Assembly (NCBI RefSeq): GCF_900119895.1
Contig: NZ_FQLR01000004.1
Location: 1,364,001 to 1,428,000 of the forward strand
Length of the DNA stretch: 64,000 bases
DNA from: Collinsella phocaeensis
GTDB lineage: Bacteria; Actinomycetota; Coriobacteriia; Coriobacteriales; Coriobacteriaceae
Direction of reading: 5' to 3'
The position numbers were made by a program, and so were the translations under genes. Positions 18,197-63,607 of the stretch are shown in pieces (position 1 is the stretch's first letter; each line of letters begins with the position of its first letter). The notes under the pieces are model-generated. The model did not search any database. It was not told where the DNA came from and worked only from the letters and a program-made list of their open reading frames with translations.

Positions 18197-19621
18197 CTAG
18201 TTCCGTCCCATCTCCACGACCGGGGAAAGCCCCCCGAAGGTCGCGGAATCGTCCGCTATTCCCCCCTCGACCTTCGCGAGCTGCTCGGCGACCGCCGAAG
18301 GCGCCGTTCCGCCGCGGGTCGTGCGCGCCGCGACGATCGCATCGATGTCGAGCGCGCCCTCGATATCGTCCCCGAACAGGTCGCTTGCCGCCCGCAGCTC
18401 CTCGATCGGGAGCTCGGAGATGTCGCACCCGCGCTTCTCCGCCGCCAGGACGAGGTGCCCCACGACGGCATGCGCCTCGCGGAAGGGCATGCCTCGCTTG
18501 GCCAGATAGTCCGCGACGTCGGTGGCGGCGAGGTGGCCGCGGTCCATGCAGGCGCGCATCCGGTCGGGACGCACCGTCCAGGTGGAGACCATGCCGGCCA
18601 TGACATCCATGCATTGCACCAGCGTGCGCGCTGTGTCGAGCGCGCCCTCCTTGTCCTCCTGCAGGTCCTTGTTGTACGCCAGGGGAAGTCCCTTGCAGGT
18701 CACGAGCAGCTGGACGAGGTTTCCGAAGACGCGCCCGCTCTTGCCGCGAATGAGCTCGGCGAAGTCGGGGTTCTTCTTCTGCGGCATGATCGACGAGCCG
18801 GTCGAATACGCGTCGGACAGGACGATGAAGCCGAACTCCTGGCTGCTCCACAGGACGATCTCCTCCGCGAGGCGCGACAGGTGCACGGAGGTCACGCTTC
18901 CGGCGTAATGGAGATCGAGCAGGAAGTCGCGGTCGGACACGGCATCGAGCGAGTTCTCGATGATGCGCGAGAACCCCAACTCGGCCGCAGTCATGGCCCG
19001 GTCCAGCGGATAGGTGGTGCCCGCGAGCGCCGCCGCGCCGAGCGGGCTGGCGTCGGCGGCGTCGAACGCCGCGTGAAGCCGCGCGAAGTCGCGCGAGAAC
19101 ATCCAGGCATAGGCAAGCAGATGATGGGCGAACAGCACCGGCTGGGCATGCTGGAGATGGGTCATCCCGGGCAGGACGGCGTCGCCATCGGACTTCGCGG
19201 CCTCGACAAGGGCGCGGCGGAGCCTGAGGTTTGCCGCCATGAGCTCGGAGCAGAGCGCCTTGGCCGCGAGGCGCGTATCGGTCGCGACCTGGTCGTTGCG
19301 CGAGCGGCCCGTGTGAAGCCGCCCGCCCGCCTCGCCGATGCGGCGCGTGAGCTCGGCCTCGATAGCCATGTGGATGTCCTCGTCGTCGATATCGAACGTG
19401 AACGCGCCGGCATCGATGTCGGCCTCGATCCCCGCCAACCCGGCACGGATGGCCTCGGCGTCCTGCTCGCTGATGATGCCCTGCGCCGCAAGCATCGCCG
19501 CATGCGCCCGAGACCCCGCGATATCCTGTCGATAGAGATGCTTGTCGACCGGAAGCGACGCGCCGAACTCCTGCGTCGACGTCGCCACGCCATCCTCGAA
19601 CCGACCGCCCCAAAGCGCCAT
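18197..19621 (-). CDS. argH: Argininosuccinate lyase
   Basis: Last enzyme of arginine synthesis: splits argininosuccinate into arginine and fumarate. The 474-residue product is full length. The fumarase/aspartase superfamily signature GSSIMPQKKNPDFAEL is intact near residue 280, and HTGRSRNDQVATD marks the active site near residue 105. GGAGG lies 7 nt before the ATG. It is the distal gene of argG - small ORF - argH. A GC-rich inverted repeat (about 19649-19687) just upstream could be an internal processing or partial termination site. Confidence 0.96.
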   Translation of the reverse strand: MALWGGRFEDGVATSTQEFGASLPVDKHLYRQDIAGSRAHAAMLAAQGIISEQDAEAIRAGLAGIEADIDAGAFTFDIDDEDIHMAIEAELTRRIGEAGGRLHTGRSRNDQVATDTRLAAKALCSELMAANLRLRRALVEAAKSDGDAVLPGMTHLQHAQPVLFAHHLLAYAWMFSRDFARLHAAFDAADASPLGAAALAGTTYPLDRAMTAAELGFSRIIENSLDAVSDRDFLLDLHYAGSVTSVHLSRLAEEIVLWSSQEFGFIVLSDAYSTGSSIMPQKKNPDFAELIRGKSGRVFGNLVQLLVTCKGLPLAYNKDLQEDKEGALDTARTLVQCMDVMAGMVSTWTVRPDRMRACMDRGHLAATDVADYLAKRGMPFREAHAVVGHLVLAAEKRGCDISELPIEELRAASDLFGDDIEGALDIDAIVAARTTRGGTAPSAVAEQLAKVEGGIADDSATFGGLSPVVEMGRN

Positions 19622-20007: not shown

Positions 20008-21297
20008 TTAGTAGTTGACGGCGTCGGCCAAGACGGGCTCGGCGGAGCCCATGACCACGTCGAGCTTCAACGCGGCGGCAGCGGTCGCTGAGGCGACCTC
20101 GGCCTTCTTGGTCGCCCAGGTCTTGAGGGAGAGGCCCTGGATATCGATGAAGCCCTTTGCGGCCTTCTGATCGAACGCGTCGTCGTTGTCATACGTAGCG
20201 AGGCTCTGGTCGTAGAGGGCGGCCGCGCTCTTGCGGCCGACGACGACGCACGACCCCTTGTAGAACTTCAGCTTCACGACACCGGTGAGTGCGGCCTGCG
20301 TATCGGCCATGAACGCGTCGAGCGCCTCCTTGAGCGGCGAGAACCAGCGACCGTTGTAGACCTGGTCGGCCCACGTCTGCTCGAGCGACAGCTTGTAGTG
20401 GAGAACGTCGCGCTCGAGGCAGAGGTCCTCGAGGGCCTTGTGGGCGGCGATGAGGGCCAAGCCGGCGGGCACCTCGTAACACTCGCGCGACTTCAGGCCG
20501 ACGTAGCGGTTCTCGATCATGTCGATGCGCCCGTAGCCGTTGGCGCCGGCGATGACGTTCAGCTTGGCGACCAGCTCGGCGACGGAGAGCCGCTCGCCGT
20601 CGAGGCTCGTGGGGACGCCGGCGGTGAAGCCGATCTCGACGTACGCGGCCTCGTCCGGGGCCAAGGCGGGATCGACCGTCATCGTCCAGATGTCCGCGGG
20701 CGGCTCGTTCCAGGGATCCTCGAGCACGCCCGCCTCGATAGCGCGCCCCCACAGGTTGTCGTCGATGGAGTACGGCTTCTCGATGCTCTGCGCGACGGGC
20801 ACGCCGTGCGCCTTCGCGTAGGCGATCTCGTCGGGACGCATGCCCAGGTCCCACTCGCGCACCGGGGCGAGGACCTTGAGCGAGGGGTCGAGCGTGGCGA
20901 TGGAGGTCTCGAACCGCACCTGGTCGTTGCCCTTGCCGGTGCAACCGTGGGCAACGCAGGTCGCTCCGTACTTATGGGCGACATCCACCAGATGGGCGGA
21001 GATGAGCGGACGGGAAAGAGCGGAGAGCAACGGGTACTTGTTCTCATACATGGCGTTCGCCGCGATGGCCCGGGTGAGGTACTCGTCAGCGAACTCATCG
21101 GTCATGTCGACAACCTCGACGGCGATGCAGCCGAGCGAACGGGCCTTGTCGGCGATCTTCTCCAGCCCGTCGTGCTCCTGGCCCACGTTGCCGAGCATGG
21201 CGATCACGTCGAGACCGAGCTCGTTTTGGAGCCACTTGATGCAGACGGAGGTATCCAGACCGCCGGAATACGCCAGAACAACCTTTTCCTTGCTCAT
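20008..21297 (-). CDS. argG: Argininosuccinate synthase
   Basis: ATP-dependent condensation of citrulline and aspartate to argininosuccinate. The 429-residue product has the N-type ATP pyrophosphatase P-loop VLAYSGGLDTSVCIKWL at its N-terminus and the family motif AHGCTGKGNDQVRFE near residue 120. Length is slightly above the common 400-residue form. The ATG has AAAGGACG upstream. The gene is preceded by a roughly 400-nt leader encoding an arginine-rich peptide and a candidate attenuator, annotated separately. First structural gene of the argG - small ORF - argH unit. Confidence 0.96.
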   Translation of the reverse strand: MSKEKVVLAYSGGLDTSVCIKWLQNELGLDVIAMLGNVGQEHDGLEKIADKARSLGCIAVEVVDMTDEFADEYLTRAIAANAMYENKYPLLSALSRPLISAHLVDVAHKYGATCVAHGCTGKGNDQVRFETSIATLDPSLKVLAPVREWDLGMRPDEIAYAKAHGVPVAQSIEKPYSIDDNLWGRAIEAGVLEDPWNEPPADIWTMTVDPALAPDEAAYVEIGFTAGVPTSLDGERLSVAELVAKLNVIAGANGYGRIDMIENRYVGLKSRECYEVPAGLALIAAHKALEDLCLERDVLHYKLSLEQTWADQVYNGRWFSPLKEALDAFMADTQAALTGVVKLKFYKGSCVVVGRKSAAALYDQSLATYDNDDAFDQKAAKGFIDIQGLSLKTWATKKAEVASATAAAALKLDVVMGSAEPVLADAVNY

Positions 21298-21348
21298 GGG
21301 AGCGTCCTTTCAAACGTGCAAGACTGCAAATGGGGATAGGACGAGTCC

Positions 21349-21377
21349 AAAAATGAGGCGTTGCGCTGCGCACACGC
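21349..21377 (-). terminator. Candidate attenuator terminator in the argG leader
   Basis: On the minus strand GCGTGTGCGCAGCGCAACGC can fold (GCGT/ACGC with an inner TGC/GCA) and is followed by CTCATTTTT. It ends about 50 nt before the argG ATG, between the arginine-rich leader ORF and the gene, the expected place for an attenuation terminator. The stem is modest, so this is a candidate only. Confidence 0.4.
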
Positions 21378-21463
21378 GATATCGGGTTGTAGCTTGAAGA
21401 CGTTGCCCACCGCAGCCCAGCGATGGCGCAAGAAGCTCCCGACGCACCTATTTCGAACCCTGC

Positions 21464-21509
21464 TGAGGGCGAACCCTCATACGAACAGAGACGACAGGTT
21501 ATCGTCGTC
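21464..21509 (-). promoter_or_regulatory. Competing hairpins at the end of the argG leader ORF
   Basis: GACGAC, formed by the last arginine codons of the leader ORF, can pair with GTCGTC 8 nt downstream (21490-21509). A second hairpin, TGAGGG-TTCG-CCCTCA with a stable UUCG loop, follows at 21464-21479. A ribosome held on the arginine codons would cover the first hairpin, which is the geometry of transcription attenuation. Confidence 0.45.
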
Positions 21510-21609
21510 GGGAGATGGCGCGCTGGCGTCGGATGGCGTTATCGGCGGTGTTGGAGCTGAGCATGAGGGCGCTCTGCGCCACGATGCACGTCAGCGAAAC
21601 GTTGCTCAC
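21499..21609 (-). CDS. Arginine-rich leader peptide of argG
   Basis: A 36-codon ORF on the argG strand with an excellent site: AAGGAGG 8 nt before the GTG start. The peptide begins MSNVSLTCIVAQSALMLSSN and ends IRRQRAISRRR before TAA. Six of its last ten codons are arginine, and four of those six are CGA. It ends 201 nt upstream of the argG ATG and is followed by alternative hairpins and a T-rich terminator candidate. By analogy with leader peptides of amino-acid operons, ribosome stalling on the Arg run when charged tRNA-Arg is scarce would favour argG expression. The ORF and its site are seen; the mechanism is inferred. Confidence 0.65.
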   Translation of the reverse strand: MSNVSLTCIVAQSALMLSSNTADNAIRRQRAISRRR

Positions 21610-21713
21610 CGGTAACCCCTCCTTCTTCATCCAGTACGCGATCAACTAAACCGCGAGCGGCAATCACCGGTCCGTAAATGGTAGACCAACGGGTCCGCTC
21701 GACGTTGGACGCT

Positions 21714-21743
21714 ATCCTACGCTAAAGTTCTCGACTCTTGCAA
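21714..21743 (-). promoter_or_regulatory. Candidate promoter of the argG leader transcript
   Basis: On the minus strand TTGCAA (21738-21743) and TAGGAT (21714-21719) are spaced by 18 bp. A start near 21706 would give a leader of about 100 nt before the leader-peptide GTG and about 410 nt before argG. A TTGAATATTG half-site just upstream faintly resembles half of an ArgR box. Confidence 0.45.
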
Positions 21744-21777
21744 GGATATTTTTTCCCATTGAATATTGTTTCGATAC

Positions 21778-21936
21778 CGTTACGTGGGTCATTCTTTCAG
21801 AACCCCGTAACGGCAGAGAAGGGGCGTGTCCACCGGCGGAGTCTAACCGCAGACAGAGGGACCGTCACCGGAAACGCGCCCGAATGCCCGGAGACAAACC
21901 TATATGCAACCCTCCATAGGCTTCCGGGCTGAACCC
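21778..21936. other. Structured intergenic stretch, possible non-coding RNA
   Basis: This gap between the argG promoter and the ABC transporter genes holds no convincing gene. It contains nested inverted repeats: CCGTTAC/GTAACGG with GGGT/ACCC inside (about 21778-21813), GGGCGTGT/ACGCGCCC (about 21822-21881), and GCCCGGA/TCCGGGC enclosing CCTAT/ATAGG (about 21886-21929). No intrinsic terminator is attached on either strand, so orientation is not known. It could be a small RNA, a leader or a protein-binding region. Confidence 0.25.
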
Positions 21937-22084: not shown

Positions 22085-22855
22085 CTAGCCTTCGAGATAC
22101 CGGGAGAGAAACTCGCGCGTGCGCGGATGCTCCGGCGCCGTGAACATCCGCTCCGGGTCGCCCTGCTCGGCGATCACGCCCTTGTCCATGAACACCACGC
22201 GGTCGGACACCGTGCGCGCAAAGGCCATCTCGTGCGTCACGACCACCATCGTCATGCCCTCGCCGGCAAGCCTGCGCATGACCTCGAGCACCTCGCCCAC
22301 GATCTCGGGGTCGAGGGCGGACGTGGGCTCGTCGAACAGCATGATCTTCGGGCTCATGCAGAGCGCGCGGGCGATGGCGACGCGCTGCTTCTGCCCTCCC
22401 GACAGCGTCTGGACCGAGGCGTGGGCGAAATCAGCGAGCCCGACCGACTCGAGGTGCCCGAGCGCCACGCGCTCGGCCTCCCGCTTGTCCGACTTCTTGA
22501 GCGTAACGGGCGCAAGCGTGCAGTTGTCGAGCACGTCCATGTTGTTGAACAGGTTGAACCCCTGGAACACCATGCCGATGTCCTCGCGCAGCCTGTTGAC
22601 GTCGACGTGGTCCGACGTGAGGTCCTTGCCCTGAAACCAGACGCTGCCGGCATCGGGCGTCTCGAGCAGGTTGATGCAGCGCAGCAGGGTGGACTTTCCA
22701 GAACCTGACGCGCCGATGATCGTGACGACCTCCCCCGGCATCACGTCGAGGTTCACGTCGTTCAAGACCGCGAGGTCGCCGAAGGACTTGCGCAGCCCCT
22801 CGATGCGGACCATCGGCTCCACGGCAGCCGCCGTGCCGTTTGACATCTGGCTCAT
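22085..22855 (-). CDS. Polar amino acid ABC transporter ATPase (GlnQ/HisP type)
   Basis: A 256-residue ABC ATPase that drives amino acid uptake. Walker A is [17 protein letters not shown], the Q-loop region MVFQGFNLF, the signature [15 protein letters not shown] and Walker [15 protein letters not shown], all typical of the polar amino acid subfamily. The ATG at 22855 has GGAGGAG upstream and starts 2 nt after the permease stop. The longer open frame back to 23176 only overlaps the permease gene. Last gene of the operon SBP - permease - ATPase. Substrate is not determined; the nearby arginine genes make a basic amino acid conceivable but prove nothing. Confidence 0.93.
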
Positions 22856-22857
22856 AG

Positions 22858-24057
22858 CTACTCCTCCTCGACGTTGATCGGTTGACAGGACGTGCTGCCC
22901 AGCTTGACCGCGCGGACGTCCAGGCGCTTCGCGAAGCGCCCGAGCAACCACGACGCGAACATGGTGAGGCAGAGGTACACCACGCTCGTGATGAGCGCGG
23001 CGTCGAAGTTGGCGTAATAGGTGCCGCCGACCGTCGTGGTGGCGAACATGAGGTCGAACGTACCGATGACGGACAGCACCGAGGAATCCTTGATGTTGAT
23101 GACGAGCTCGTTGGAAAGCGCGGGGATCGCGTACTTGACGCCCTGCGGGAAGACGACCTTCCTCATCGCCTGCCACTGCGAGAGACCGAGCGAGCGAGCC
23201 GCCTCGGCCTGACCCGCATCGACCGACTCGATGCCGCCGCGCAAGACCTCCATCATATAGGCGGTGGAGTTGAGCACGATGGTGACGAGGCCCGCCGCGA
23301 ACGTGGTCCAGATGGAGTTGATCTGCGTGGTGGTGAGATCCGTCAGCTTGAACAGCTTGAACACGCCGAAGAAGACGATCATCGCCTGGACCATCATCGG
23401 CGTGCCTCGGACCACGGTGCTGTAGACGCGCGCGAACCCGGAGCCGACGATCTTGCAGAAGCGCACGAAGTCGTTATCCGAGCGGTCGGGCACCTGGATG
23501 CGCAGGAACACCAGGAGCAGCGCCAGGAAGAACGCGATGGCGGTTCCGAAGACCGCGAGCGCGACCGTCGTCTTGAACCCGGTGAAGAAGATGTCGCGGC
23601 TCTTGATGAGCAGGAAGAGCATGCTCTCGAGCATGGGCTCGGGCCGCGACGGAGCCGCGACGGCGACCTGCCAGGCGGAGGCGAGCCCCATGGCCACGCG
23701 GTCGACGACGAGGACCGCGACGATCGCGCAGACGGCGTAGGAGCCGTAACGCAGCGCTCGGGCGACTGCCGGACGCACGAAGGGCGATGCGGTGGCGTAT
23801 GCGTCCCGCTGGACGAGCTTGAACGCGAGCGCCACGGCGGCGACGGCCAGCCACGCGGCTAGCAGATAGTACATGACGACTTCGACGACGTAGGCACGGG
23901 CCAGGAAGCTGAGCGCAGGCCTGCTCAAGCTCGAAAGGAACATGCCCACTGCGGCGATCGCGCTCGTGCCGAGCAGCACGTAGCGATGGTCGCCCGTGAT
24001 GAACGCGGAGATGCGCGCGATGCGCGGCGCCCCGGCGCCGGATTGGTTGGAGCCCAT
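22858..24057 (-). CDS. Polar amino acid ABC transporter permease
   Basis: A 399-residue membrane protein of the HisM/GlnP type. The C-terminal half carries the transporter fold with the EAA loop [21 protein letters not shown]. The family's usual permease is about 220-240 residues; here an extra N-terminal part of about 170 residues contains three or so added membrane segments ([55 protein letters not shown]). The hydrophobic pattern of a single permease suggests a homodimer. Middle gene of the importer operon. Confidence 0.9.
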
Positions 24058-24168
24058 ATGCTCTCCCCCGTTGTCTCTCGATTGCGCAGGACGCGCGCGG
24101 ACTCTCGCCCGGCGCGCGCCCAGCCTATCTCCTCATGTCAGGGCGGCAACGCCGCCCGCGCTCGTGCG

Positions 24169-25089
24169 CTACGCCGGCTGACGGTCCATGCAGTCGTTCC
24201 ACATGGACTGGCGATCGTCCTCGGTGATGCCGGCGATGATCTCGTTGATCGCGTCGAGGACGGCGTCTTGCCCCTTGGCGATGGCGGCGTTGTCGGGCAT
24301 GACGGAGCCCGTGAACGCATCGGTCATCTCAAGCTGGATGAAGTCGGGGTAGACCTCGAGGAGCTTGGGTGCGGAGAGCTTGGAATAGGTGATGACGTCG
24401 CAGGTGCCGTTCACGAGGTTCTCCACGACCATGGGGACGGTCTCGGCGGGCGTCATGTGGTTGATGTCGGGGATCTGCTCGATGACGTCGTCGAACATCG
24501 TGGCAGCCTGGCCGAGCACGGAGGCGCCGGCGAGGTCGGCGAACGTGGTGGCGCCCGCGAAGGAGGAGTCCTTCTTGGCGATCATGATGATGTCGTCGTC
24601 GACGTAGGAATCGGAGAACGCGGCGGCCGCTTCGCGCTCGAGCGTAACGGACATGCCCGCGCACACGATGTCGACCTGACCGTTGTTGAGCGCGTCGATG
24701 AGCGAGCCGAACTCGAGCTTCACCGCGACCGCGTCCATGTCGAGGCCCTCCGCGATGATCTTGGCGACCTGCACGTCGTAGCCGTCGGCGTAGGCGCCGT
24801 CGACGTTCTCGATGGGGACGGTGAAGTCAGACTCCTCGGAGACCTGCCAGTTATACGGGGCGTAGGCCGCCTCCATGCCGACGCGCAGCGTCTTGCCGTC
24901 GCCCAGCTGCGCCGTGGCGGCATCGCCGTCCGCCGCGGCATCGCCTCCGTCGCCCTGGGGGGCCGGGCCGCAGCCCGCGAGGAACATCAAGCCTCCCACG
25001 CTCAAAGCCGTCATGCCGGAGAGCTTCAAAAAGTCCCTACGGGAGCGCATGGCGGGTTGTGCAGTTACATCGACAGTCTCGTGAGTCAT
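24169..25089 (-). CDS. Amino acid ABC transporter substrate-binding lipoprotein with Tat-type signal
   Basis: A 306-residue periplasmic-binding-protein homologue (SBP_bac_3). The N-terminus carries SRRDFLK, a good twin-arginine motif, followed by a hydrophobic stretch ending in the lipobox LAGC, so it is likely exported folded and then lipid-anchored. The ligand-binding domain starts at LRVGMEAAYAPYNW and has the usual second lobe. GGAGG precedes ATG 25089; an upstream open frame to 25212 is not supported. First gene of the importer operon, with a hairpin and a small palindrome in its leader. Confidence 0.9.
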   Translation of the reverse strand: MTHETVDVTAQPAMRSRRDFLKLSGMTALSVGGLMFLAGCGPAPQGDGGDAAADGDAATAQLGDGKTLRVGMEAAYAPYNWQVSEESDFTVPIENVDGAYADGYDVQVAKIIAEGLDMDAVAVKLEFGSLIDALNNGQVDIVCAGMSVTLEREAAAAFSDSYVDDDIIMIAKKDSSFAGATTFADLAGASVLGQAATMFDDVIEQIPDINHMTPAETVPMVVENLVNGTCDVITYSKLSAPKLLEVYPDFIQLEMTDAFTGSVMPDNAAIAKGQDAVLDAINEIIAGITEDDRQSMWNDCMDRQPA

Positions 25090-25137
25090 GATGCTACCTC
25101 CAGATTTTGTCTGAGACCCCTTCCGCACGGCGCAACC

Positions 25138-25222
25138 AGAGGGGGCCCATCCCCCTCTCCCTTGCAACTTAATGCGTGAAAGTTCCGCGTGCTGCCGGCA
25201 AGCATACTCCATCTAAATGGAG
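25138..25222 (-). promoter_or_regulatory. Leader hairpin and promoter-proximal palindrome of the importer operon
   Basis: The palindrome CTCCAT-CTAA-ATGGAG (25207-25222) lies beside a minus-strand TATGCT box and could be a small operator. Downstream, in the transcribed leader, AGAGGGGG and CCCCCTCT pair around five bases (25138-25158) without a T-run. Regulation is therefore likely but its kind is unknown. Confidence 0.35.
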
Positions 25223-61699: not shown

Positions 61700-63607
61700 A
61701 TGGTTGCCCAAGAACGGACCGAGCAGACTCTGAAGTACCTCACGCTGCTCTCGCATCAGTTCCCCAATCAGCAAGCGGTCTTCACGGAGATCATCAACCT
61801 CCAGGCCATCCTCAACCTACCCAAGGGCACCGAGCACTTCATGAGCGACCTGCACGGCGAGTACGAGGCGTTCATGCACATCCTCAACAACTGCTCCGGC
61901 GTGGTCCGCGAGCATGTCGACGAGATCTTCGGCGACGAGCTGACCTCCGAGCAGAAGGGCGAGCTCTGCACGCTCATCTACTACCCGAGCGAGAAGATCG
62001 CCCGCGTGCGCGCCGCGCGCCTCGACTCCCCTTCCTGGTACAAGGAGAACCTCGACAACCTGATCCAGATCGCCCGCGCGCTCTCGAGCCGCTACACGCG
62101 CTCCAAGGTCCGCAAGGCCATCCCGCATGACTACGCCTACATCATCGACGAGCTGCTGCACACGCATCCCGACGAGAACAACTACCGCGTGCGGTACCAC
62201 GAGCGCATCATCGACTCCATCCTCGAGACCGCATCCGCCGACGACTTCATCCGCTCGCTCTCGGCTCTCATCAAGCGCCTCGCCGTCGATCACCTGCACC
62301 TCGTCGGAGACGTGTTCGACCGCGGCGGCGGCGCAGCGAAGATCATGGACAGCCTGATGGAGTACCACTCCCTCGACATCCAGTGGGGAAACCACGACAT
62401 CCTGTGGATGGGTGCGGCCGCGGGCGAGCCCGCCTGCATCGTGAGCGTGCTCCGCAACAACCTGCGCTACGACAACTACGAGATCCTGGAGAACGACTAC
62501 GGCATCTCGCTGCGCGAGCTCGTCGCGTTCGCCGACCGGACCTATCGGGAGGACGATGGGCGCTCCCCTCTCATCAAGGCCATCAACGTGCTGCTCTTCA
62601 AGCTCGAGGGGCAGATCATCGCGCGCCATCCGGAATTCGACATGGAAGACCGCCTGCTGCTGGACAAGATCGACGTCGACCGCGGAACCGTCTCCATCGC
62701 CGGCACCGAGCACGCCCTCAACACCCGGGACTTCCCCACCCTCGATCCCGCGCATCCGTACCGTCTGACCGAGGACGAGCAGCGCATCGTCGACAAGCTC
62801 GTCTACGAGTTCACCAGCGACGACCGCCTCAGCCGCCACGTGGAGTTCCTGTACAGCCACGGCTCGATCTACCTCGCGCGCAACGGCAACCTCCTGTTCC
62901 ACGGCTGCGTCCCCATGAACGAGGACGGAACGTTCTCGAGCATGAACTGCATGGGCACCTGGCGCGCCGGCAAGGACTATCTGGACTTCTGCGACCGCAT
63001 AGCCCGCAAGGCCTGGCGCGACCGCGACCAAGAGGCCCTCGACTGGATGTGGTACCTGTGGATCGGCTTCAAATCGCCCATCTCGGGCCGCGTCGTCAAG
63101 ACCTTCGAGCGCTCCTATATCGATGACAGGTCCACCTGGGAGGAGCCCATGGACCCCTACTTCGAGCTGACGCACGACATCTACGCATGCGATGCGATCA
63201 TGCGGGAATTCGGGCTCATGCCCGGCTACGGCCACATCATCAACGGGCACACGCCCGTCAAGACCAAGAAGGGCGAGCAGCCCATCCGGGCAGACGGCCG
63301 CCTGCTCGTCATCGACGGCGGATTCTGCCAGGCCTACCACCCCAAGACGGGCATCGCGGGCTATACGCTCATCTCGAGTTCTCGCGGCATGCGCCTGAAG
63401 GCGCACGAGGCGTTCAAGAGCGTCGAGGAGGCGCTCACCCGCAATGCCGACATCCAGAGCGAGACCAACCGCTTCGACGTCGCCACGCGGCGGCTCATGG
63501 TCTCCGACACCGATACGGGCGAAGTCATCCGGGGGCAGATCAACGATCTGCGGTTGCTGCTCGACGCCTACCGCAACGGCACGATCGCGGAGCGCCGCCT
63601 GCGATAG
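61700..63607 (+). CDS. fbp: Class III fructose-1,6-bisphosphatase
   Basis: Gluconeogenic phosphatase of the Firmicutes-type class III, 635 residues (usual about 640-670). Metallophosphatase motifs are MSDLHGEYEAFMHIL, LVGDVFDRGGGAAKIMD and WGNHDILWMGAAAGE, then HGCVPMNEDG and INGHTPVK later. AAGGAGG lies 7 nt before ATG 61700; the much longer open frame upstream to 61331 is an artefact over the exporter ATPase gene. It stands alone after the exporter genes. Confidence 0.94.
   Translation: MVAQERTEQTLKYLTLLSHQFPNQQAVFTEIINLQAILNLPKGTEHFMSDLHGEYEAFMHILNNCSGVVREHVDEIFGDELTSEQKGELCTLIYYPSEKIARVRAARLDSPSWYKENLDNLIQIARALSSRYTRSKVRKAIPHDYAYIIDELLHTHPDENNYRVRYHERIIDSILETASADDFIRSLSALIKRLAVDHLHLVGDVFDRGGGAAKIMDSLMEYHSLDIQWGNHDILWMGAAAGEPACIVSVLRNNLRYDNYEILENDYGISLRELVAFADRTYREDDGRSPLIKAINVLLFKLEGQIIARHPEFDMEDRLLLDKIDVDRGTVSIAGTEHALNTRDFPTLDPAHPYRLTEDEQRIVDKLVYEFTSDDRLSRHVEFLYSHGSIYLARNGNLLFHGCVPMNEDGTFSSMNCMGTWRAGKDYLDFCDRIARKAWRDRDQEALDWMWYLWIGFKSPISGRVVKTFERSYIDDRSTWEEPMDPYFELTHDIYACDAIMREFGLMPGYGHIINGHTPVKTKKGEQPIRADGRLLVIDGGFCQAYHPKTGIAGYTLISSSRGMRLKAHEAFKSVEEALTRNADIQSETNRFDVATRRLMVSDTDTGEVIRGQINDLRLLLDAYRNGTIAERRLR

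What the first reader, a model, noticed from the sequence alone, without database searches (positions are those of the whole stretch)
21349..21743. argG is preceded by an arginine-rich leader ORF with attenuator-like hairpins
Seen: a 36-codon ORF with AAGGAGG 8 nt before its GTG start, ending in IRRQRAISRRR (six Arg in the last ten codons, four of them CGA). Its last Arg codons are part of a GACGAC/GTCGTC hairpin, followed by a UUCG-loop hairpin and a small T5-terminated hairpin that ends about 50 nt before argG. A TTGCAA/TAGGAT promoter lies upstream. Known: leader peptides rich in the end product control many amino-acid operons by ribosome stalling, but I am not aware of one described for argG in Coriobacteriia. 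Inference: charged tRNA-Arg level controls argG-argH by attenuation.
Basis: partly seen in the sequence, partly recalled or inferred. Interest (0 to 1): 0.85.

Follow-up and report, generated by a model that had tools for sequence, protein, structure and literature searches.

The report
Arginine-sensing leader switch upstream of argG
Just before its argG-argH arginine genes, this gut bacterium (Collinsella) carries a tiny gene ending in a run of rare arginine codons and a foldable RNA; relatives keep both, and it most likely lets ribosomes that run short of arginine switch argG on, a type of control not previously reported for arginine genes in this bacterial phylum.

Summary
The window (Collinsella-type genome) has a GTG-started 36-codon ORF (21499-21609, minus strand) ending RRQRAISRRR*, 201 nt upstream of argG. 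The same ending lies at one place per genome in 45 of 67 family genomes. A related RRQxRR leader precedes argG in Atopobiaceae and some Eggerthellaceae: all 20 examined hits of a genome-wide codon pattern lay 159-312 nt before argG. CGA, 6% of arginine codons in window genes, fills 4 of 6 here and is invariant. In Atopobiaceae, modelling a ribosome stalled on the first CGA-CGC abolishes a U-run terminator in 10 of 14 leaders (6% of shuffled controls): textbook attenuation, in silico. Collinsella differs. The window has no intrinsic terminator; the "T5 hairpin" is the 3' arm of a strongly covarying ~100-nt long-range helix. This helix competes with a helix made from the arginine codons, giving two folds of nearly equal energy. 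I infer an arginine-tRNA-sensing, ribosome-controlled RNA switch at argG; whether its output in the window is transcription termination, translation or RNA decay is unresolved. No Rfam family matches; a 2005 survey reported no RNA control of arginine operons in Actinobacteria.

The parts
21711..21727 (-). Conserved promoter element CTTTAGCGTAGGATAGC with -10 TAGGAT (21714-21719); -35-like TTGCAA at 21738-21743
   Evidence: A CTTTAG[CG][CG]TA..(A)TAGC-like element recurs upstream of the leader in most Collinsella relatives inspected; one match in the window (0.04 expected, up to 2 mismatches) and one in the whole genome. The -35 is less conserved
21654..21701 (-). 5' UTR stem, arms CGAGCGG 21695-21701 and CCGCTCG 21654-21660, upstream of the leader ORF
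   Evidence: Read by eye; relatives seem to keep it with different bases (AAACGG:CCGUUU, GUGAAGCGG:CCGCUCAC). Not tested statistically
21618..21624 (-). Shine-Dalgarno AAGGAGG of the leader ORF, 8 nt before GTG
   Evidence: Sequence
21499..21609 (-). Leader ORF, 36 codons + TAA, ending RRQRAISRRR
   Evidence: Conserved ending upstream of argG across the genus and family; pN/pS 0.10 in the last ten codons; no NCBIfam match
21520..21531 (-). First Arg cluster CGA CGC CAG CGC (RRQR): proposed first sensing (stall) site, shared with Atopobiaceae RRQxRR
21499..21510 (-). Second Arg cluster CGA CGA CGA + TAA, 5' arm of the switch helices
   Evidence: CGACGACGA identical in all 45 pattern hits
21568..21580 (-). 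Hairpin inside the ORF (GGCGC-AGA-GCGCC); relatives appear to have AUGGC..GCCAU at the same codons
   Evidence: By eye; possible pause hairpin, inferred
21490..21509 (-). Helix H12: last Arg codons 21504-21509 pair with 21490-21495, stop codon in the loop
   Evidence: comparable stop-spanning hairpins in Adlercreutzia and Parvibacter relatives
21458..21490 (-). Helix H23 (21486-21490 : 21458-21462) with the UUCG-loop hairpin 21464-21479 inside
   Evidence: apparent compensatory changes CUCUG:CAGAG / CUCCG:CGGGG / CUUUGGC:GCCGGAG
21436..21514 (-). Helix H14: CUCCCGACG (21506-21514, Ser-Arg-Arg codons) : CGUCGGGAG (21436-21444), 9 perfect pairs, ~60 nt apart
   Evidence: recurs at a similar distance in most relatives, single-sequence z -0.2 to -4.8
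21343..21460 (-).
   Evidence: 92% of cells paired, covariation 0.575 vs 0.28 shuffled and <=0.21 when slid; 0 of 20000 permutations
21303..21343 (-). Possible anti-SD hairpin CGUCC (21339-21343) : GGACG (21303-21307) covering the argG SD
   Evidence: SD about 21% unpaired in the model in all states
20008..21297 (-). argG, argininosuccinate synthase
   Evidence: NF001770 574 bits (cut-off 334), TIGR00032 504 bits (cut-off 268)
18197..19621 (-). argH, argininosuccinate lyase, downstream on the same strand
   Evidence: TIGR00838 584 bits (cut-off 279.5)

Best explanation
A ribosome-controlled RNA switch that senses charged arginine tRNA and sets expression of argG (and probably argH). Shown by sequence comparison: a translated-looking leader ORF with two clusters of mostly rare Arg codons, a conserved promoter, and RNA helices that cannot coexist in a nested fold. 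Inferred: when Arg-tRNA is scarce the ribosome stalls on the first cluster (RRQR), leaving the last codons free to pair downstream (H14, or H12); when Arg is plentiful the ribosome runs to the stop codon, covers those codons, and H3'5 forms instead. In Atopobiaceae the corresponding alternative pairing is an antiterminator, giving classical transcription attenuation (ON at low Arg). In the window the sign is taken over from those relatives, and the output (Rho-dependent or non-canonical termination, argG translation, or RNA stability) is not determined.
For: Arg-rich ORF conserved upstream of argG, one site per genome, in 45 of 67 family genomes with 0 control hits; found independently by anchoring on argG. 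RRQxRR codon pattern searched over 199 order genomes: the 20 hits examined were all 159-312 nt upstream of argG. The same ORF criterion finds no >=5-Arg leader upstream of argC in 17 sequences, 16 of them from the wider class. Rare CGA codons enriched and invariant. pN/pS 0.10 in the Arg tail vs 0.77 for the whole ORF. Stall-versus-stop switch of terminator probability in 10 of 14 Atopobiaceae-type leaders vs 53/840 shuffled, and 8 of 12 in the pattern-derived set (partly the same genomes) vs 57/480. Covarying long-range helix. Two folds within 2.6 kcal/mol in the window, with only H3'5 left when the ribosome is at the stop codon. Short-loop U-run terminators in 19 of 44 leaders vs 11/220 shuffles.
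Against: No intrinsic terminator in the window or in most sequences of Collinsella groups B, C, D. In Collinsella groups A and E, which have terminators, the model shows little or no loss of the terminator on stalling. Predicted argG SD exposure does not change between ribosome states. In several Collinsella the model prefers H12 with H3'5 even when stalled at RR1. No expression, ribosome profiling or mutational data. Four of 14 Atopobiaceae-type leaders do not switch in the model. Some relatives lack the leader (for example L110; and argG follows argR in Gordonibacter/Eggerthella).
Confidence: 0.8

Rival explanations
1. Strict classical transcription attenuation in the window too, with H14 or another hairpin acting as a non-canonical intrinsic terminator.
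For: Relatives have real terminators between leader and argG. In several C. aerofaciens-type and group C sequences the 3' arm of H14 is directly followed by UUUU, so the Arg codons themselves would be the terminator's 5' arm; in L028 the Arg codons do form a terminator GACGAC..GUCGUC-UUUUCUU.
Against: In the window the tract after H14 is CUUCUUG; no terminator scores. The U run after H14 is not conserved. As a terminator H14 would need release of the ribosome rather than a stall at RRQR, opposite to the role inferred from group E and Atopobiaceae.
Confidence: 0.25
2. Translation-level or Rho/decay-level control, as in Salmonella orf34-speF: the switch changes argG RBS access, Rho access or RNase cleavage.
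For: No intrinsic terminator; CGUCC:GGACG-type anti-SD appears in several groups; the covarying helix ends directly upstream of the anti-SD; orf34-speF uses Arg codons, Rho and RBS sequestration (PMC6386406).
Against: Predicted SD exposure is the same in stalled and stop states; C-over-G excess between leader and argG is confined to the last ~120 nt.
Confidence: 0.4
3. Nascent-peptide arrest: the peptide RRQRAISRRR itself, not only Arg-tRNA supply, pauses the ribosome in response to arginine.
For: Non-Arg residues Q, A, I, S are kept while their codons drift (Ala: GCA/GCG/GCT/GCC; Ile: ATT/ATC), which Arg sensing alone does not need; RRQ also recurs across families.
Against: Peptide context differs between families (RRQxRRIT, RRRRxxxLRRRxA), whereas Arg codons and pairing are common; the set was chosen by a pattern that fixes part of this ending.
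Confidence: 0.12
4. Chance ORF in GC-rich sequence over an ordinary 5' UTR; no regulation.
For: Arg-rich off-frame ORFs are common in GC-rich DNA: shuffled upstream sequences give a hit 5% of the time and ArgR C-termini give false positives.
Against: Conservation, single copy at argG, codon bias, covariation.
Confidence: 0.02

Closest known systems
Ribosome-mediated amino-acid attenuators (trp, his, leu operons of enterobacteria; trp of Corynebacterium and Streptomyces, PMC1262725)
   Same: Short ORF rich in codons of the pathway product upstream of a biosynthetic gene; alternative helices involving the leader codons; in Atopobiaceae relatives also antiterminator/terminator
   Different: Senses arginine; PMC1262725 reports no conserved RNA structures upstream of arginine operons in Actinobacteria. 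The window lacks an intrinsic terminator and has instead a covarying ~100-nt long-range helix
Salmonella orf34-speF (PMC6386406)
   Same: Arg codons in a leader ORF sense arginine and change RNA folding, with no simple intrinsic terminator
   Different: Controls ornithine decarboxylase, not arginine synthesis; two Arg codons early in the ORF; enteric bacteria; relationship not examined here
Staphylococcus aureus rbfL-rbf (PMC13009471)
   Same: Rare Arg codons in a leader peptide sense arginine supply
   Different: Eight-residue peptide, blocks the downstream RBS directly, represses at low arginine, target is a biofilm regulator
Candidate cys leader peptides without obvious terminators in Mycobacterium (PMC1262725)
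   Same: Product-codon-rich leader without a visible terminator; Rho suggested there
   Different: Cysteine, different genes and sequences
Pseudomonas aeruginosa carA leader peptide (mentioned in PMC4997734)
   Same: Leader peptide at a gene shared by the arginine pathway
   Different: Attenuation there is described as pyrimidine control; arginine acts at transcription

Membership tests
Classical ribosome-mediated transcription attenuator (window locus) | Translatable leader ORF with several codons for the end product | tested here: met
Classical ribosome-mediated transcription attenuator (window locus) | Leader ORF conserved upstream of a gene for that amino acid's synthesis | tested here: met
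Classical ribosome-mediated transcription attenuator (window locus) | Intrinsic terminator (hairpin plus U run) between leader and first gene | tested here: not met
   none in the window; present in Collinsella groups A and E and in Atopobiaceae
Classical ribosome-mediated transcription attenuator (window locus) | Alternative helix excluded or allowed by ribosome position | tested here: inconclusive
   H14 vs H3'5 are mutually exclusive in a nested fold and respond to ribosome position in the model, H3'5 covaries; H14 is not independently proven, and not all relatives behave alike
Classical ribosome-mediated transcription attenuator (window locus) | Expression responds to charged-tRNA level | not testable with these tools
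   No expression data available here
Classical attenuator (Atopobiaceae argG relatives) | Terminator lost when ribosome stalls at the product codons and kept when it reaches the stop | tested here: met
   In silico only: 10 of 14 vs 6% of shuffles; 8 of 12 vs 12%
T-box riboswitch or any Rfam cis-regulatory family | Covariance-model match | tested here: not met
   No match up to E = 5 in 21250-21800; none at gathering score at this locus

The most novel reading that the evidence does not exclude
Collinsella argG is controlled by a terminator-free, bistable leader RNA in which a ribosome paused on a conserved arginine-rich peptide (RRQRAISRRR), possibly through arginine-dependent nascent-peptide arrest, decides between a helix made from its own codons and a covarying helix spanning ~100 nt that ends just upstream of the argG ribosome-binding site.
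Probability: 0.2. Interest if true: 0.75.

Novelty: new variant of a known kind. Interest (0 to 1): 0.6.

Why it matters
It would add arginine to the amino acids whose synthesis is controlled by leader-peptide attenuation in Actinobacteria, where a survey found none for arginine (PMC1262725), and it is conserved in common gut and oral Coriobacteriia whose gene regulation is little studied. The series from textbook terminator/antiterminator leaders (Atopobiaceae) to terminator-free, long-range-helix leaders (Collinsella) upstream of the same gene gives a way to study how one attenuator changes its output step while keeping its sensor.

Tried and rejected
T5 hairpin (21358-21377 plus T5) as terminator: no scan supports it and the T5 is the 3' arm of H3'5. 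Switch through argG SD exposure: modelled SD accessibility does not change. Terminator loss on stalling in Collinsella groups A and E: little or no effect. A second leader copy suggested by hits at q185-214 in G037, G042 and G043: in G043 it lies in a sugar-permease-like gene, not a leader. A leader at argCJBD of the same genome: no Arg-rich ORF found upstream of argC. Rfam/T-box: none. Arg-rich ORF hits upstream of argG in Eggerthella and Gordonibacter: C-terminus of argR, discarded. An early idea that H14 is itself the terminator: not kept as the main reading because the U run is not conserved and group E implies the opposite role.

Full report
What is there. On the minus strand, in transcription order: a promoter-like element (CTTTAGCGTAGGATAGC, 21711-21727), a ~100-nt 5' UTR, a strong Shine-Dalgarno, a 36-codon ORF (21499-21609) ending RRQRAISRRR*, a ~200-nt structured spacer, and argG (20008-21297), followed by argH (18197-19621). 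argG and argH are clear by NCBIfam. The ORF has no NCBIfam match and the spacer has no Rfam match up to E = 5. The promoter element has one match in the window (0.04 expected) and one in the genome, and similar elements sit at the same place in most of the Collinsella relatives printed.

More than chance. Arginine is 7.0% of codons in the window's genes and CGA 6.3% of arginine codons; six Arg in ten codons with four CGA has probabilities of about 2e-5 and 2e-4. Anchoring on argG rather than on the leader, nearly every Collinsella/Enorma upstream region contains an ORF ending RRQRAISRRR or RRRRAISRRR. A degenerate codon pattern for RRQRAISRRR* hits exactly once in each of 45 of 67 family genomes, with no hits for the reversed control pattern. 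Inside that set the Ala, Ile, Ser, fourth-Arg and stop codons vary while CGACGACGA is fixed. pN/pS is 0.10 in the last ten codons and 0.77 for the whole ORF. That set was selected by a pattern that constrains the ending, so the 0.10 is partly built in; the argG-anchored search is the independent check.

Wider relatives. Atopobiaceae and a few Eggerthellaceae carry RRQxRR leaders upstream of argG (RRQNRRITP, RRQGRRITL, RRQDRRTALR), and Adlercreutzia and Parvibacter types carry other Arg-rich endings. The nucleotide pattern CGACGYCAGNNNCGACGNAY, searched over 199 genomes of the order without reference to argG, hit 26 genomes; all 20 hits fetched lie 159-312 nt upstream of argG. The same ORF test upstream of argC (16 class genomes plus the own genome) found no leader with five or more Arg. 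In Gordonibacter and Eggerthella argG follows argR, whose C-terminus gives false hits.

Attenuation in Atopobiaceae. In many of these leaders a hairpin with U run lies between ORF and argG. I compared terminator probability with the RNA masked as if the ribosome stalled on the first CGA-CGC, and as if it sat at the stop codon. In 10 of 14 leaders terminator probability was below 0.1 when stalled and above 0.6 at the stop; shuffling the intervening tail gave this in 53 of 840 trials. The pattern-derived set, which shares some genomes with the first, gave 8 of 12 versus 57 of 480. This is the textbook arrangement, in silico.

Collinsella and the window. Here the 3' end of the ORF can form H12 (with the sequence just after the stop) or H14 (CUCCCGACG with CGUCGGGAG, 9 bp, about 60 nt downstream). 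A second long-range helix, H3'5, joins 21451-21460 to 21343-21352. On 25 distinct arm pairs 92.4% of cells pair, with covariation 0.575 against 0.28 in shuffles and at most 0.21 when slid; no permutation of partners reached the observed pairing. The arms were located by flanking motifs, with hand correction for eight sequences whose regex anchors failed or misfired, including the window; arms were not chosen by best pairing, but hand placement is a caveat. H14 and H3'5 cannot coexist in a nested fold. In the window the H14 fold is -83.0 and the H12 + H3'5 fold -80.4 kcal/mol; with the ribosome at the stop codon only H3'5 remains. Other relatives vary: some prefer H12 + H3'5 even when stalled.

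What the output is. No intrinsic terminator was found in the window or in most sequences of Collinsella groups B, C and D; short-loop U-run terminators occur in 19 of 44 leaders overall versus 11 of 220 shuffles. Predicted access to the argG SD in the window is the same (about 0.21) in all ribosome states. So the sensor is well supported, the switch reasonably so, and the output in the window is open. The ON-at-low-arginine sign is borrowed from the Atopobiaceae leaders and from group E, where H14 overlaps the terminator's 5' arm.

Known or new. A 2005 comparative study of Actinobacteria reports no conserved RNA structures upstream of arginine operons (PMC1262725). Arg-codon sensors exist elsewhere for other targets: Salmonella orf34-speF (PMC6386406) and S. 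aureus rbfL (PMC13009471). Full-text searches found no argG leader peptide in Coriobacteriia; the library lacks most subscription papers. I rate it a new variant of a known kind.

Noticed in passing
25119-25192 (-): Corio-PBP RNA (RF02945, 100.7 bits) lies at the 5' end of a polar-amino-acid ABC transporter cluster (22085-25212) upstream of the argG locus; its binding protein resembles Lys/Arg/Orn-type proteins below the family cut-offs.
   Followed up: partly
21745-21790 (-): AT-rich stretch upstream of the promoter (AATATTCAATGG...AAAAAATAT) that might be an ARG box; the genome has one ArgR (G000:C1:668 kb). ArgR control could act together with the leader.
   Followed up: no
21547-21576 (-): A 30-nt piece of the leader ORF is 90% identical to a piece of a sugar-permease-like gene in another Collinsella (G043 locus L112; also hits in L111, L113), while most relatives have LATYEGMA-type sequence there. 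Possibly chance.
   Followed up: partly
L076 and similar C. aerofaciens-type loci: ArgG is only about 65% identical to the window's ArgG (C. stercoris ArgG: 83%), yet the leader ending is nearly identical, so the enzyme and its leader may have different histories.
   Followed up: no
G017 (L004/L085), G023: No ArgJ match in these genomes; G017 still keeps the argG leader, so argGH may serve citrulline use there.
   Followed up: no
61979-62073 (-): ARAGORN reports a 95-nt tRNA with a four-base anticodon (acca) that Rfam's tRNA model does not report; probably spurious.
   Followed up: no
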